Part shown: piece by piece, positions 54,043 to 59,882 of the stretch
Position numbering within the stretch: position 1 is the stretch's first letter
Layout of the letters: each line of letters opens with the position of its first letter
Origin: Bacteroidia bacterium
GTDB lineage: Bacteria > Bacteroidota > Bacteroidia > J057
NCBI GenBank assembly: GCA_033391075.1
Contig: JAWPMV010000001.1
Coordinates: 3,782,001-3,846,000, forward strand
Direction of reading: 5' to 3'
DNA length: 64,000 bases
Position numbers and translations under genes: made by a program
Notes under the pieces: generated by a model
Database searches by the model: none
What the model saw: only the letters and a program-made list of their open reading frames with translations
What the model was told of the DNA's origin: nothing

Positions 54043-54600
54043 TTAGCTTAGAATATCTGATACGAGTATTTCCAGATCAAAGCCTTGAATTCTCAAAACA
54101 TCAACATGCTTTTTGAGGTCTTTTGTGGAATAGTTTCCATCCTTCGGATTTGTATAAACTTCAATCTGCCCATTTTCCAAATCAACAATCCAGCAAACTG
54201 GAATATTTGCTAACGCATAATTTGGAAGTTTTAGTTGCTGATCATATTCAAGCGAACTGTCAGCGACTTCAATTATTAGAATGATATCCTCAGGACCAGG
54301 ATGGCTATCCGTATAATCATCTGCTCGAAATTTAAGAATAGCAATATCAGGTTCAGGCTCCGAAAAATCATTCAGTTTGACTGGATCTTGGACACTAATA
54401 ATCACCTCATTTTCAGGTAACTTATTCAGAATCCTGTTAATCCGCTTTACGTGTCCAGCATGCTTACTTCCGATTGGGCTTATGGTGAAAATCTCTCCCT
54501 GGATTAATTCCACACGATCCTCTCTCTTCAGAATACCTACCTCGGACATGAGGTGATATTCCTCCACATTAATCAATCTTCTAGCATGAAATAAAGCCAT
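54043..54600 (-). CDS. Uma2 family endonuclease-like protein
   Basis: A 185-residue protein of the Uma2 (DUF820-type) family with a PD-(D/E)xK-like nuclease fold: EPDIAILKF gives the PD motif, IILIIEVADSSLEYD the Glu strand, and QLKLPNYALANIPVCWIVD the Lys region. Members are found in many copies in cyanobacteria and Bacteroidota; biological role is largely unknown. A run of AAGTTC repeats lies upstream of its start. Confidence 0.85.
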   Translation of the reverse strand: MALFHARRLINVEEYHLMSEVGILKREDRVELIQGEIFTISPIGSKHAGHVKRINRILNKLPENEVIISVQDPVKLNDFSEPEPDIAILKFRADDYTDSHPGPEDIILIIEVADSSLEYDQQLKLPNYALANIPVCWIVDLENGQIEVYTNPKDGNYSTKDLKKHVDVLRIQGFDLEILVSDILS

Positions 54601-55500: not shown

Positions 55501-56802
55501 ATGCGACTTTACAGTACCAAAAATAAGAACAATTTCCGTAGCCTCAAGGAAGCAGTCCTCAAGGGTTTACCCGAAGATAAAGGACTCTTCATGCCGGAGG
55601 AAATCCCTCAATTGCCCCCTGAGTTTTTCCAAAAGCTGCCCCAGATGTCCTTTCCGGAACTGGCCTATGAAGTGAGTAAATGCTTGCTGAAAGGAGCCAT
55701 ACCGGATGAAGAACTGAAAGCTATTATCGAGCAAGCCATCAATTTTGATGCGCCGGTGCATAGTCTGGATGAGGACAAGCATATTTTGGAACTGTTTCAC
55801 GGGCCTTCCCTGGCCTTCAAGGATTTTGGCGCCCGCTTTATGGCCCAGCTGATGTCCTATTTTGTCAAACATGAAGGGAAGAAGCTCTACATCCTGGTGG
55901 CAACTTCGGGCGATACCGGAGGAGCGGTAGCTTCAGGATTTTATCAAACCGAAGGAATCGAAGTAGTCATCCTCTATCCCAGTGGAAAGGTAAGCTTGCT
56001 ACAAGAAAAGCAGTTGACCACCCTCGGCCATAATATACAGGCATTGGAGGTAGATGGAACTTTTGATGATTGTCAGGCATTGGTGAAAGAGGCTTTTCTG
56101 GATAAAGAACTCAATGAAGAGATGAGACTGAGTTCGGCGAATAGCATCAACATAGCCCGCCTGATCCCGCAGTCTTTCTATTATTTCCGCGCCTGGCAAC
56201 AATTAAGACAAAACGATAAAAAAGTTGCCTTTGCGGTGCCCAGTGGAAATTTTGGGAATTTGACAGCCGGATTATTAGCCAAACGAATGGGACTTCCCAT
56301 AGATCATTTCATTGCGGCTACCAATGTCAATGACATCGTTCCCGCTTACCTGGCTTCAGGAGAATATAGCCCCAGGCCTTCTTCTCCAACCATTTCCAAT
56401 GCCATGGACGTAGGTAATCCCAGCAATTTTGAACGAATGAGGGACCTATTCGGAGAGGATTGGGAGAAGATGAAAGCTGAGATCAGTGGGTTTAGCTACA
56501 CGGATGAAGAAACGAGAGAAGCCATCCAGGCAGTTTATGATGCCTATGGCTATATCATAGATCCACATGCAGCCGTGGCCTATTTAGCTTTTCATGACTT
56601 CAGGAAAAATAATCCAAATTATCAGGGAGTCATTTTAGGAACTGCTCATCCGGCCAAATTTCTGGATGTGATTGAGCCTGTATTGGATAGAAAGGTTCCT
56701 GTTCCGGAAAGGCTGGAGATTCTCCGTGATCGCAAAAAAGAATCTATCGAAATTGGAATTGGCTATCCGGAATTTAAGTCTACTCTTTTGAGCCTGCTTT
56801 AA
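55501..56802 (+). CDS. thrC: Threonine synthase
   Basis: A 433-residue PLP-dependent enzyme that converts O-phosphohomoserine to threonine. The internal aldimine Lys107 is in LAFKDFGARF; SGDTGGAVASGF holds the PLP phosphate; AVPSGNFGNLTAGLLAKRMG and NPSNFERM complete the class II-like signature. The start at 55501 gives the full N-terminal domain (MRLYSTKNKN). It supplies threonine to threonine dehydratase, encoded by ilvA at the end of this window. It overlaps the convergent ATP-cone nuclease gene by 4 bp (TTAA shared by both stops). No ilvA-type leader precedes it. Confidence 0.95.
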   Translation: MRLYSTKNKNNFRSLKEAVLKGLPEDKGLFMPEEIPQLPPEFFQKLPQMSFPELAYEVSKCLLKGAIPDEELKAIIEQAINFDAPVHSLDEDKHILELFHGPSLAFKDFGARFMAQLMSYFVKHEGKKLYILVATSGDTGGAVASGFYQTEGIEVVILYPSGKVSLLQEKQLTTLGHNIQALEVDGTFDDCQALVKEAFLDKELNEEMRLSSANSINIARLIPQSFYYFRAWQQLRQNDKKVAFAVPSGNFGNLTAGLLAKRMGLPIDHFIAATNVNDIVPAYLASGEYSPRPSSPTISNAMDVGNPSNFERMRDLFGEDWEKMKAEISGFSYTDEETREAIQAVYDAYGYIIDPHAAVAYLAFHDFRKNNPNYQGVILGTAHPAKFLDVIEPVLDRKVPVPERLEILRDRKKESIEIGIGYPEFKSTLLSLL

Positions 56803-57638
56803 TCACAAAGCCCTTCTATTTCCTGATAGGCTTTATTGATTCGGGTAGGCCTGATATTGAGGCTCTTCAGTAATTCATCCTTGCCCAGCAAATCACGGCA
56901 GAGGACAATTCCTTTATCCAGCAATTTTTGCTTCTCTTTTTTGGTAAGGGAGGTTAAAGTCGTAATAGGATATAGATTTTCTGCTTCGATCAGGTCTCGC
57001 AAATTTCCCTCTTTAGGGAATCCCCAGGAAACGAGATTCATCCCATAATAGGTTCCGTAATTCAGGGCATCCTCTGTAAAGCGTGAGTTGGTAACGATCC
57101 AGCCTTCATACTCCCGGCCTCGAAAGTCTGGATTTTCTTTCCATTCGTTTCGCAAGTCACGAAAACGAGAATGAATATACATGGCTACCCGTACATCCAC
57201 TTTTTTGGAGGCAGTATTTCCGAATTTACATTCAACCATAATCTGCCGATTGCCCTTTACCCCAAATACATCGACTTCATGAGTAATCCCTTTCCCTTGC
57301 ATCACCACTCCCACTTTCACTTCAAAACCCTGCTTCTTAAGAATCTCTCCCACGAATCTTTCGAAAGGATAACCCGAAGGCCCAAGCTCCATTACCGCTG
57401 ATTTCAATTTATATTTTGCTGCACAAGGGCGGCCATTTTTTTTGAGCAGAGCATAGGCTTTTTGGTAAATTTTGCGGGAAGAAATGCCCGGTACCAAAGT
57501 CGCCTCTACCTCTTCTGCGATTTCACGTACTGTCAGTTCATCGGCTCCTGCCTTGGTCAGAGATTGCCTGAGTTTCTTTCCATCGTAGGGAACTAATTCC
57601 CCTGAGGCTTTCGTGATGTATAATTCTTTTATCTGCAT
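56799..57638 (-). CDS. ATP-cone domain fused to an Mrr-like restriction-endonuclease domain
   Basis: A 279-residue protein with no signal peptide. Residues 1-85 form an ATP-cone (ITKASGELVPYDGKKLRQSL), the regulatory nucleotide-binding module of ribonucleotide reductases and NrdR. Residues 90-215 are a PD-(D/E)xK nuclease: GYPFERFVGEILKKQGFEV, Asp123 in HEVDVFG, Glu136 and Lys138 in MVECKFG. The last 60 residues contain a helix-hairpin-helix-like segment (LLDKGIVLCRDLLGKDELL). The domain set suggests a nuclease gated by ATP/dATP, perhaps in defence or DNA repair (inference). It lies alone, with no methylase nearby. Confidence 0.8.
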   Translation of the reverse strand: MQIKELYITKASGELVPYDGKKLRQSLTKAGADELTVREIAEEVEATLVPGISSRKIYQKAYALLKKNGRPCAAKYKLKSAVMELGPSGYPFERFVGEILKKQGFEVKVGVVMQGKGITHEVDVFGVKGNRQIMVECKFGNTASKKVDVRVAMYIHSRFRDLRNEWKENPDFRGREYEGWIVTNSRFTEDALNYGTYYGMNLVSWGFPKEGNLRDLIEAENLYPITTLTSLTKKEKQKLLDKGIVLCRDLLGKDELLKSLNIRPTRINKAYQEIEGLCD

Positions 57639-57658: not shown

Positions 57659-57754
57659 TGTCATTGCGAACGAAGTGAAGCAATCTCCTTAAATCCAATA
57701 ACCTTATAAAAATCAAGAGGATTGCTTCGCCGTAGTTTCCGGCTCGCAATGACA
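57659..57754. repeat. Dispersed repeat R1, full copy
   Basis: Outer arms TGTCATTGCGA (57659-57669) and CTCGCAATGACA (57743-57754), inner arms GAAGCAATCTCCTT and AAGAGGATTGCTTC, and a right flank CAGCTTTGCTGGGTC shared with the copy at 35069-35164. It directly follows the start of the ATP-cone gene (in its upstream region). The 576 bp gap 57639-58214 contains this repeat and the ilv leader. Confidence 0.85.
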
Positions 57755-58214: not shown

Positions 58215-59882
58215 ATGAACCGCTACAGTAAAAGATTGACCCAGGATGAAACTCAGCCAGCAGCATTGGCTATGCTATACGGTTTGGGTTTGAGTGAAGA
58301 AGACCTGAACAAGGCACAGGTAGGCATCGTGAGCACCGGTTACGAGGGCAATACCTGCAATATGCATTTGAATGATTTGGCAACACGCGTGAAAGCCGGA
58401 GTAATGGATGAGGACCTTTTGGGTCTGATCTTTCACACGATAGGTGTGAGTGATGGAATGTCAATGGGAACGGAAGGAATGCGTTACTCTCTTCCTTCCC
58501 GAGATGTAATTGCCGACTCCATAGAAACTGTAGTAAATGCCCAATGGTACGATAGCCTGATCACAGTTGTGGGTTGCGATAAGAATATGCCGGGTGCCAT
58601 GATGGCTATAGCTCGCCTCAATCGTCCTTCTATTCTGGTGTACGGAGGTTCTATAGCTGGAGGACATTATAAAGGAGAAACCCTGAACATCGTTTCCGCA
58701 TTTGAGGCTTTGGGCGAAAAAGTTGCCGGCAACATCAGTCCGGAAGACTTCAAAGGCATCATACAAAATGCATGTCCGGGAGCGGGTGCATGCGGAGGTA
58801 TGTACACGGCAAATACGATGGCTACAGCCATAGAAGCCATGGGAATGAGTCTTCCCTACAGTGCTTCGAATCCAGCCGTAAGTGAAGATAAATATGCGGA
58901 ATGCCTGAAAGCCGGAAGTGCTATCAGGCATTTGCTTTCTGAGAACATTCTTCCCAGAGATATCATGACCAAAAAGGCTTTTGAAAATGCCCTGACCATG
59001 ATCATGATTATGGGAGGATCTACCAATTCTGCCTTGCACATGATTGCTATCGCCAAGGCAGCCGAAGTAGATATCACCCTGGATGATTTTCAGCGAATCA
59101 GTGATAAAACTCCTTATATCGGGGATCTAAAGCCTTCAGGTAAATACCTGATGAAGGATGTACATGCATTGGGAGGCACACCTGCTGTAATGAAAATGGT
59201 GTTGGAAGCCGGTTATCTGCATGGAGATTGTATGACAGTTACCGGTAAAACGCTGGCTGAAAATCTGGCTGAGCTTCCGGGACTTCCTGCAGAACAAAAA
59301 CTCTTCTACTCTTTCGACAATCCCATCAAAGAGAGTGGCCATCTGCAAATCCTGTATGGGAATTTAGCTGAGGATGGTTGTGTAGCAAAAATCACAGGAA
59401 AAGAAGGAGAAGTATTTGAAGGAGTAGCTCATGTTTTTGATAGTGAGTTTGAGGCAAATGAAGCCATAGTAGCCGGGAAAGTAGTTTCAGGTGAAGTAAT
59501 CGTAATTCGCTATGAAGGACCCAAAGGAGGACCGGGCATGCCTGAGATGCTAAAACCAACCGGAGCCATTATGGGAGCTGGATTGGGAAATAGTGTAGCC
59601 CTGATTACCGACGGAAGATTTTCCGGAGGCACCCATGGATTTGTTGTGGGACATATCACTCCGGAAGCTCAGGTTGGCGGCTTGATTGGCTTGCTGGAGA
59701 ATGGAGATAAAATCACCATAGATGCAAAAGACAATAAGATCGTTGCACATATTTCGGAAGAAGAAATAGCGAAAAGAAGGGCCAGCTGGAGCCCCAAACC
59801 TCCCAGAGTAAGTCGGGGAGTACTTTACAAATACAGCAAAACTGTATCCACTGCCTCAGAAGGCTGTGTTACTGACCAATAG
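58215..59882 (+). CDS. ilvD: Dihydroxy-acid dehydratase
   Basis: A 555-residue Fe-S enzyme that dehydrates 2,3-dihydroxy-isovalerate and -3-methylvalerate to the 2-oxo acids. Cluster ligands are Cys48 (GNTCNMH), Cys121 ([10 protein letters not shown]) and Cys193 ([12 protein letters not shown]); KGGPGMPEM and [12 protein letters not shown] are the other signatures. Length and start are normal. It is the first gene of ilvD-ilvB-ilvN-ilvC-ilvA and lies behind the attenuator at 58004-58132, so all five genes probably share its control. Confidence 0.97.

What the first reader, a model, noticed from the sequence alone, without database searches (positions are those of the whole stretch)
56799..57638. 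ATP-cone domain fused to an Mrr-like nuclease and HhH segment
Asp123, Glu136, Lys138 give a PD-(D/E)xK site, preceded by an ATP-cone that normally reads ATP/dATP levels in ribonucleotide reductase. A nuclease governed by deoxynucleotide level would fit defence against phage or DNA stress. There is no methyltransferase nearby, so it is not a classical restriction system.
Basis: partly seen in the sequence, partly recalled or inferred. Interest (0 to 1): 0.6.

Follow-up and report, generated by a model that had tools for sequence, protein, structure and literature searches.

The report
Nucleotide-sensing nuclease linked to nucleotide recycling
The gene encodes a probable DNA- or RNA-cutting enzyme fused to a domain that senses ATP-type molecules, and in many other bacteria and archaea its relatives sit beside genes that break down and recycle nucleic acids, which suggests an energy-stress recycling role rather than virus defence, although the copy in this genome stands alone.

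Summary
Window 56799-57638 (minus strand, 279 aa) is an ATP-cone (7-71), an Mrr/AF1548-type PD-(D/E)XK domain (88-200) and an HhH-like AF1548 C-terminal domain (223-276). D123, E136 and K138 are invariant in all 137 homologues aligned. A confident model matches NrdR/RNR ATP-cones and AF1548 (1Y88).

The defence reading is not supported. The window copy lies between thrC and the ilv operon. Elsewhere, in Bacteroidota, 42 of 76 homologues are followed on the same strand by a beta-CASP nuclease, and some of these clusters go on to AMP phosphorylase and a PRPP synthetase-like gene; two plasmids, one from Chlamydiota, carry the four-gene cassette. In an archaeal sample, 11 of 28 genomes with both genes have AMP phosphorylase within 3.2 kb, two beside type III RuBisCO. 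Universal-stress and fermentation genes recur nearby. No phage or viral-contig relative was found.

Best reading: a nuclease gated by adenine nucleotides that degrades nucleic acid in energy stress, coupled to NMP catabolism. Gating, substrate and coupling are inferred. The window genome lacks the partner genes, so its copy is an orphan; it has also lost a cysteine pair (C117/C197) that is otherwise present or absent together.

The parts
56799..57638 (-). ATP-cone / Mrr-AF1548-type nuclease / HhH-like protein, 279 aa
57426..57620 (-). ATP-cone domain, residues 7-71; K10, G13, K22 and S54 equal E. coli NrdA K9, G12, K21, T55
57039..57377 (-). Mrr_cat / AF1548-type PD-(D/E)XK nuclease domain, residues 88-200
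57270..57272 (-). catalytic D123 codon
   Evidence: sequence; invariant 137/137
57231..57233 (-). catalytic E136 codon
   Evidence: sequence; invariant 137/137
57225..57227 (-). catalytic K138 codon
   Evidence: sequence; invariant 137/137
56811..56972 (-). AF1548-like C-terminal domain, HhH-like fold, residues 223-276
55501..56802 (+). thrC (threonine synthase), convergent neighbour whose stop codon overlaps the nuclease stop; context only
58215..59882 (+). ilvD, first gene of the divergent ilvD-ilvB-ilvN-ilvC run; context only

Best explanation
The protein is a cytoplasmic PD-(D/E)XK nuclease of the AF1548 kind whose activity is gated by an N-terminal ATP-cone that reads the adenine-nucleotide state, with an HhH-like domain that holds nucleic acid. 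When energy falls it cuts cellular (and any other) nucleic acid. In many lineages the fragments then pass to partners encoded beside it: a beta-CASP exonuclease makes nucleoside monophosphates, AMP phosphorylase turns these into base and ribose-1,5-bisphosphate, and this goes on through a PRPP synthetase-like enzyme (Bacteroidota, Chlamydiota) or R15P isomerase and type III RuBisCO (archaea). It is thus the nuclease arm of an energy-stress nucleic-acid recycling route. In the window's genome it is an orphan copy that keeps the catalytic site but has no AMP phosphorylase or close beta-CASP partner. Shown by computation: domains, fold, invariant site, conserved linkage. Inferred: that it cuts, which nucleic acid, which nucleotide gates it and in which direction, and the flow of products.
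For: Domains and fold. Invariant D123/E136/K138 (137 of 137). Beta-CASP gene next on the same strand: 42 of 76 near-full-length places in the 395-genome Bacteroidota sample, 41 of the gaps at most 58 nt; 43 of 47 genomes with the close beta-CASP subfamily (E <= 1e-130) carry the nuclease, against 72 of 395 overall (on data). Linkage changes at least 11 times on well supported branches, so it was gained or lost repeatedly. AMP phosphorylase-type gene over cut-off in only 2 of 395 Bacteroidota genomes, both with the nuclease and with just the beta-CASP gene, or that and one small ORF, between; within 5 genes in 18 of 79 named loci. Four-gene cassette on plasmids of Criblamydia and Pontibacter, the former with phosphoketolase, glgP, acetate kinase and glucoamylase. 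Archaeal sample: 28 of 39 nuclease genomes have AMP phosphorylase against 51 of 161 without the nuclease, and 11 of the 28 within 3.2 kb; L204 and L212 add type III RuBisCO over cut-off. Usp within 5 genes in 10 of 49 and 13 of 79 loci.
Against: The window's genome has no beta-CASP match at E <= 1e-60 and only a weak match (E 9.4e-9) to the phosphorylase model, and 0 of 7 family relatives has the beta-CASP neighbour, so the route cannot run as described here. AMP phosphorylase is adjacent in a minority (2 of 49 sampled Bacteroidota loci; 18 of 79 loci chosen by similarity to the query). A Proteobacterial plasmid carries beta-CASP, phosphorylase and PRPP synthetase without the nuclease in the stretch shown, so it is an add-on. 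Linkage shows shared use, not reaction order. AMP phosphorylase uses ribonucleotides (recalled), while an Mrr-like nuclease would be expected to cut DNA. The cone pocket differs from NrdA at two ligand positions. No FNR- or CRP-like motif enrichment upstream. Loci are related by descent, so the p-values are descriptive only.
Confidence: 0.5

Rival explanations
1. A DNA-repair or replication-stress nuclease: the ATP-cone senses dATP/ATP imbalance and lets a NucS/Hjc-like nuclease process damaged or stalled DNA; linkage to nucleotide genes reflects supply of precursors.
For: Fold neighbours include the NucS-type repair endonuclease 2vld (Z 11.6) and EndoMS (Z 11.2); weak Hjc match; HhH-like tail; single copy in a housekeeping context in the window; ilv genes also lie near the nuclease in 3 of 7 family loci.
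Against: No recurrent repair or replication genes among the recurrent clusters that I looked at; the recurrent partners are catabolic and stress genes; patchy presence (72 near-full-length of 395) is unlike a core repair enzyme.
Confidence: 0.22
2. Phage defence: a ligand-gated nuclease that destroys DNA when infection upsets nucleotide pools, like Card1/Can2 or NucC but with an ATP-cone as sensor.
For: Card1, Can2, Cdn1 and NucC are among the fold neighbours (Z 9-11); PADLOC hits to CARF-PDDEXK models, mostly through the nuclease domain; patchy distribution and two plasmid copies; the partner beta-CASP protein scores 371 bits against the type VII Cas14 model, below its cut-off of 800.
Against: Neighbourhoods hold metabolic and stress genes; no match in 50,697 phage records or in IMG/VR; the PADLOC matches lie mainly in the shared nuclease fold, not a defence-specific part.
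Confidence: 0.13
3. A redox- and nucleotide-dependent regulator that binds nucleic acid and cuts rarely or not at all; the paired cysteines C117 and C197 form a switch.
For: C117 and C197 are both Cys in 132 of 137 and both absent in 5 of 137, never one alone, lost in three separate places of the tree; both present in AF1548 and in 20 of 20 archaeal loci; NrdR, the best cone match, is a repressor.
Against: The full D-ExK site is invariant, which a pure regulator would not need; the window copy lacks both cysteines.
Confidence: 0.08

Closest known systems
AF1548 of Archaeoglobus fulgidus (PDB 1Y88; Pfam PF22357 with Mrr_cat)
   Same: Nuclease and C-terminal domains along residues 88-279 (Z 22.6, 3.2 A over 181; E 5e-47); same three catalytic residues, predicted in 2007; cysteine pair of the family present
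   Different: The solved chain has no ATP-cone; biochemical function not reported in anything I saw
ATP-cone of NrdR, NrdA/NrdD and the cone-bearing NrdB
   Same: Cone fold (Z 9.2-11.8 for rows listed); K10, G13, K22, T/S54 kept
   Different: Output domain is a nuclease; R10 and H59 of NrdA replaced; ligand untested. The cone of one NrdB binds ATP, dATP and dADP (passage read, eLife.31529)
Card1/Can2 (CARF plus PD-(D/E)XK)
   Same: Works like: a small-ligand sensor at the N-terminus gating a PD-(D/E)XK nuclease; fold Z about 10 over 116-131 residues for rows listed
   Different: Sensor is an ATP-cone, not CARF; no CRISPR genes among the recurrent neighbour clusters that I identified; HhH-like tail
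Archaeal AMP (pentose bisphosphate) pathway: NMP phosphorylase, R15P isomerase, type III RuBisCO
   Same: Nuclease gene clusters with genes of this pathway in L197, L198, L204, L212
   Different: No nuclease appeared in the passages of PMC9700705 that I read; the link is by gene neighbourhood only, and is absent in the window

Membership tests
ATP-cone (PF03477) | profile match over the curated cut-off | tested here: met
   28 bits against 25.8 in the genome scan; 25.5 bits, just below, for the protein alone; E <= 1e-3 in 127 of 137 homologues
ATP-cone (PF03477) | cone fold | tested here: met
   NrdR Z 11.8, rmsd 1.4 over 78 residues
ATP-cone (PF03477) | nucleotide-binding residues | tested here: inconclusive
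   K10, K22, S54 kept; R10 to A11 and H59 to Y58 changed (identity of NrdA ligand residues recalled)
ATP-cone (PF03477) | binds ATP or dATP and regulates the attached domain | not testable with these tools
   needs biochemistry
AF1548-like Mrr PD-(D/E)XK nucleases | Mrr_cat and AF1548-like_C profiles over cut-off | tested here: met
   31.2 bits against 21, 28.2 against 23.9
AF1548-like Mrr PD-(D/E)XK nucleases | D-ExK catalytic residues conserved | tested here: met
   137 of 137, 20 of 20 archaeal loci
AF1548-like Mrr PD-(D/E)XK nucleases | nuclease activity | not testable with these tools
   no assay of a relative found in the papers I saw
Restriction-modification / Mrr restriction system | methyltransferase nearby or modification-recognition domain in the protein | tested here: not met
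   no such gene among the ten window neighbours scanned; no such domain in the protein. Modification-dependent cutting itself was not tested
Known anti-phage system | match to a PADLOC system over its whole length with system partners | tested here: not met
   only partial matches, mostly the nuclease domain; neighbours give PDC-S03 (Uma2) and one GlgB match
NMP recycling cassette (nuclease, beta-CASP, AMP phosphorylase, PRPP synthetase) | partner genes beside the nuclease in this genome | tested here: not met
   not beside it; no beta-CASP at E <= 1e-60 and no phosphorylase over cut-off in G000. Relatives elsewhere do meet it

The most novel reading that the evidence does not exclude
ATP-cones outside ribonucleotide metabolism act as energy gauges on catabolic enzymes: here on a nuclease that, when adenylate charge drops, turns the cell's own nucleic acid into phosphate-bearing sugar for ATP, a route shared by archaea with type III RuBisCO and by Bacteroidota and Chlamydiota that acquired it as a mobile cassette; a sister gene carries the same cone on a glucoamylase-like enzyme, so storage glucan and nucleic acid would be opened by one kind of sensor.
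Probability: 0.25. Interest if true: 0.85.

Novelty: new variant of a known kind. Interest (0 to 1): 0.58.

Why it matters
What feeds the archaeal AMP phosphorylase / type III RuBisCO route inside the cell is a question that this linkage makes testable: a nuclease with a nucleotide-sensing domain is encoded beside it in several archaeal genomes and, with a different downstream enzyme, in Bacteroidota and on a chlamydial plasmid. It would add nuclease control to the jobs of the ATP-cone, so far studied mainly in ribonucleotide reduction, and would give a function to AF1548, solved in 2004 with function unknown.

Tried and rejected
Phage or viral origin: no match in phages; 72 pattern stretches in IMG/VR, none a relative. 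Defence island in the window: ten neighbours scanned, only Uma2 (PDC-S03) and an alpha-amylase (GlgB) match PADLOC. Regulation by an FNR or CRP box: 1 and 0 of 138 upstream stretches, control means 0.56 and 0.02. Sequence-only PDB search with the cone profile gave designed repeat proteins first and RNR cones only at E 0.06-0.24; I relied on the fold match. C-terminal domain alone: best Foldseek E 0.042, so HhH is a fold-level reading. Papers: no paper held the terms searched for the fusion or for the link to AMP phosphorylase (none; listings with nothing on it that I could see from titles, abstract starts or, for PMC4390871, passages). The library holds CC-licensed PMC papers only, so this does not show that nothing is in print.

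Rows dropped before counts: the G000 row, four cone-only glucoamylase fusions and three partial or weak rows (G353 twice, G368) were left out of the 76 places, and two pieces in G235 were joined; two pieces in G429 were joined and a second fragment in G599 left out; four of 20 archaeal ORFs lacked the N-terminus under my ORF caller. In one search the 49 sample loci were picked by me to spread over genera from the 76 places; L068 had no nuclease ORF in the 80 named loci. G407, the centre of the archaeal sample, has a copy that branches among Bacteroidota, so its contig may be transferred or a contaminant; without it the archaeal counts are 10 of 27.

Full report
OBSERVATION. Pfam gives ATP-cone at 7-71 (E 1.9e-5, 25.5 bits, cut-off 25.8), Mrr_cat at 88-200 (E 2.6e-7, over cut-off) and AF1548-like_C at 223-276 (E 2e-6, over cut-off). 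In the scan of the whole genome the cone scores 28 bits, over the cut-off, and it is the only PF03477 match in that 9.49 Mb genome. Of 137 homologues, 127 match the cone, 133 Mrr_cat and 86 AF1548-like_C at E <= 1e-3.

FOLD AND SITE. AlphaFold2 on 137 sequences gives pLDDT 95.9 and pTM 0.91. The cone part fits NrdR (Z 11.8, 1.4 A over 78) and RNR cones (Z about 10); the rest fits AF1548 (Z 22.6, 3.2 A over 181), then AspBHI, NucS and Card1/Can2 type nucleases (Z 10-12). D123, E136, K138, H120 and E121 are identical in 137 of 137. D123, E136 and K138 align to D51, E64, K66 of the 1y88 chain, which are the 38D, 51E, 53K predicted as catalytic in 2007 if the chain is offset by 13 (PMC1821046, passage read). 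The C-terminal domain folded alone (pLDDT 83.4) resembles AF1548 (Z 8.8), RadA/RAD51 N-terminal domains (Z up to 8.0), alpha-CTD and BAF, in line with an HhH-like fold (class recalled).

THE SENSOR. Profile alignment to the E. coli NrdA cone and a joint alignment with NrdR (hhalign probability 93) keep K9, G12, K21 and T55 of NrdA as K10, G13, K22 and S54 (T in 129 of 137), but put A11 at R10 and Y58 at H59. That these NrdA residues touch nucleotide is recalled. The pocket is therefore cone-like but altered; ATP, dATP, ADP or AMP are all open. A cone of NrdB from Leeuwenhoekiella blandensis binds two dATP, two ATP or two dADP (eLife.31529, passage read).

A CYSTEINE PAIR. C117 and C197 are both Cys in 132 of 137 sequences and both something else in 5, never one alone. 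The losses lie in three places of the tree: the window protein (G117, Y197), L059, and the L166-L168 clade. AF1548 has both, as do 20 of 20 archaeal loci. A disulphide, shared metal or tight contact would explain this; I could not measure the distance.

CONTEXT IN THE WINDOW. The gene is convergent with thrC, with overlapping stop codons, and divergent from ilvD-ilvB-ilvN-ilvC. It is single copy in its genome. Of 13 genomes of the family 8 have it. None of the 7 family loci fetched has a beta-CASP neighbour; ilv genes lie near the nuclease in 3 of the 7 (L011, L014, L015). The genome has no beta-CASP match at E <= 1e-60 and no phosphorylase over cut-off.

CONTEXT ELSEWHERE, BACTEROIDOTA. In 395 genomes drawn from the phylum 74 match, 72 of them near full length. 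Of 76 near-full-length places, 42 are followed on the same strand within 500 nt by a beta-CASP metallo-beta-lactamase nuclease, 41 of them within 58 nt; 43 of the 47 genomes with that beta-CASP subfamily at E <= 1e-130 have the nuclease, 4 do not (G111, G222, G377, G391). In gene maps, the beta-CASP gene is next on the same strand in 22 of 49 sample loci and 15 of 79 named loci, and universal stress proteins lie within 5 genes in 10 of 49 and 13 of 79. The AMP phosphorylase-type model TIGR02645 passes its cut-off in 2 of 395 genomes; both have the nuclease in the same cluster. It lies within 5 genes in 18 of the 79 named loci, which were selected by similarity to the query. Identities of partners, one representative each: Beta-Casp plus RMMBL; TIGR02645/NF003338 phosphorylase; NF005537 ribose-phosphate diphosphokinase; Usp.

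OTHER LINEAGES. Two plasmids carry nuclease, MBL, thymidine-phosphorylase family and ribose-phosphate pyrophosphokinase in a row: Criblamydia sequanensis (Chlamydiota), with CusA, P-type ATPase, phosphoketolase, glgP, acetate kinase and glucoamylase around, and Pontibacter actiniarum. A Ciceribacter plasmid has the MBL, phosphorylase, PRPP synthetase and a gene of phosphoketolase length, with a Crp/Fnr regulator, but no nuclease in the stretch. In 200 genomes of the phylum of G407 (record title Nitrososphaera; a thermosome gene and type III RuBisCO near homologues point to archaea), I counted 40 near-full-length or long places in 39 genomes at E <= 1e-36 (97 of 200 have some match at E <= 0.001, most of the rest short). 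AMP phosphorylase passes its cut-off in 79 of 200; 28 of the 39 have both, and 11 of the 28 have them within 3.2 kb. L204 and L212 add type III RuBisCO over cut-off; the R15P isomerase model is over cut-off in L197 and below it in L212 and L204. G407's own copy branches among Bacteroidota; without it the figures are 10 of 27.

HISTORY. On a tree of 155 rows the sixteen archaeal rows form one side of a branch (support 98), the window copy joins its family (support 94), and the label 'beta-CASP within three genes downstream' needs 16 changes (17 for all labels together), at least 11 on well supported branches. So the pairing was made or lost many times and is not one inherited accident.

MECHANISM. 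Most likely an adenine-nucleotide-gated nuclease serving nucleic-acid recycling in energy stress (0.5). Shown: architecture, fold, invariant site, linkage. Inferred: activity, substrate, ligand, sign of regulation, product flow. The linkage could also reflect nucleotide supply for repair (0.22). Defence (0.13) has the fold kinship with Card1/Can2 and the patchy, partly plasmid-borne distribution on its side, but not the neighbours, and no viral relatives were found. For the orphan in this window the same biochemistry is expected, but the partner enzymes are missing and the cysteine pair is lost, so its role here is less sure than that of its relatives.

NOVELTY. The parts are known: the cone as a mobile domain (title of Aravind, Wolf and Koonin 2000 seen in a reference list; not read) and AF1548 as a predicted nuclease. 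The plasmid records name such proteins 'ATP cone domain-containing protein'. I found no paper on the fusion or on its tie to AMP phosphorylase in the searches listed under Tried and rejected. I rate it a new variant of a known kind.

Noticed in passing
L126:4350-5885 (+), also L127:5001-6530: An ORF about 350 nt downstream of the nuclease fuses an ATP-cone (E 6.1e-7, over cut-off; lacking the last cone helix) to a glucoamylase-like domain (PF10091, E 3.9e-86); seen as a second cone match beside the nuclease in four genomes of one genus.
   Followed up: partly
L030:6319-7695 (-) and its relatives: The beta-CASP partner scores best against the type VII Cas14 model among NCBIfam models (371 bits, cut-off 800) and then aCPSF1: a possible non-CRISPR relative of Cas14.
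   Followed up: partly
window 57662-57685: A 24-base element upstream of the nuclease occurs 12 times exactly (one base left open) in the genome, with none for the reversed control pattern; it abuts an imperfect inverted repeat, so it may be a REP-like element.
   Followed up: partly
window 54043-54600 (-): A Uma2-family putative endonuclease (PF05685, E 9.4e-31; PADLOC PDC-S03) 2.2 kb from the finding.
   Followed up: no
whole genome G000: The nuclease is the only PF03477 match in the genome, so no cone-bearing ribonucleotide reductase or NrdR was detected there.
   Followed up: no
L065 (Nitrososphaera MAG contig): A nuclease copy that branches among Bacteroidota although the record is titled as an archaeal MAG: transfer or contamination.
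   Followed up: partly
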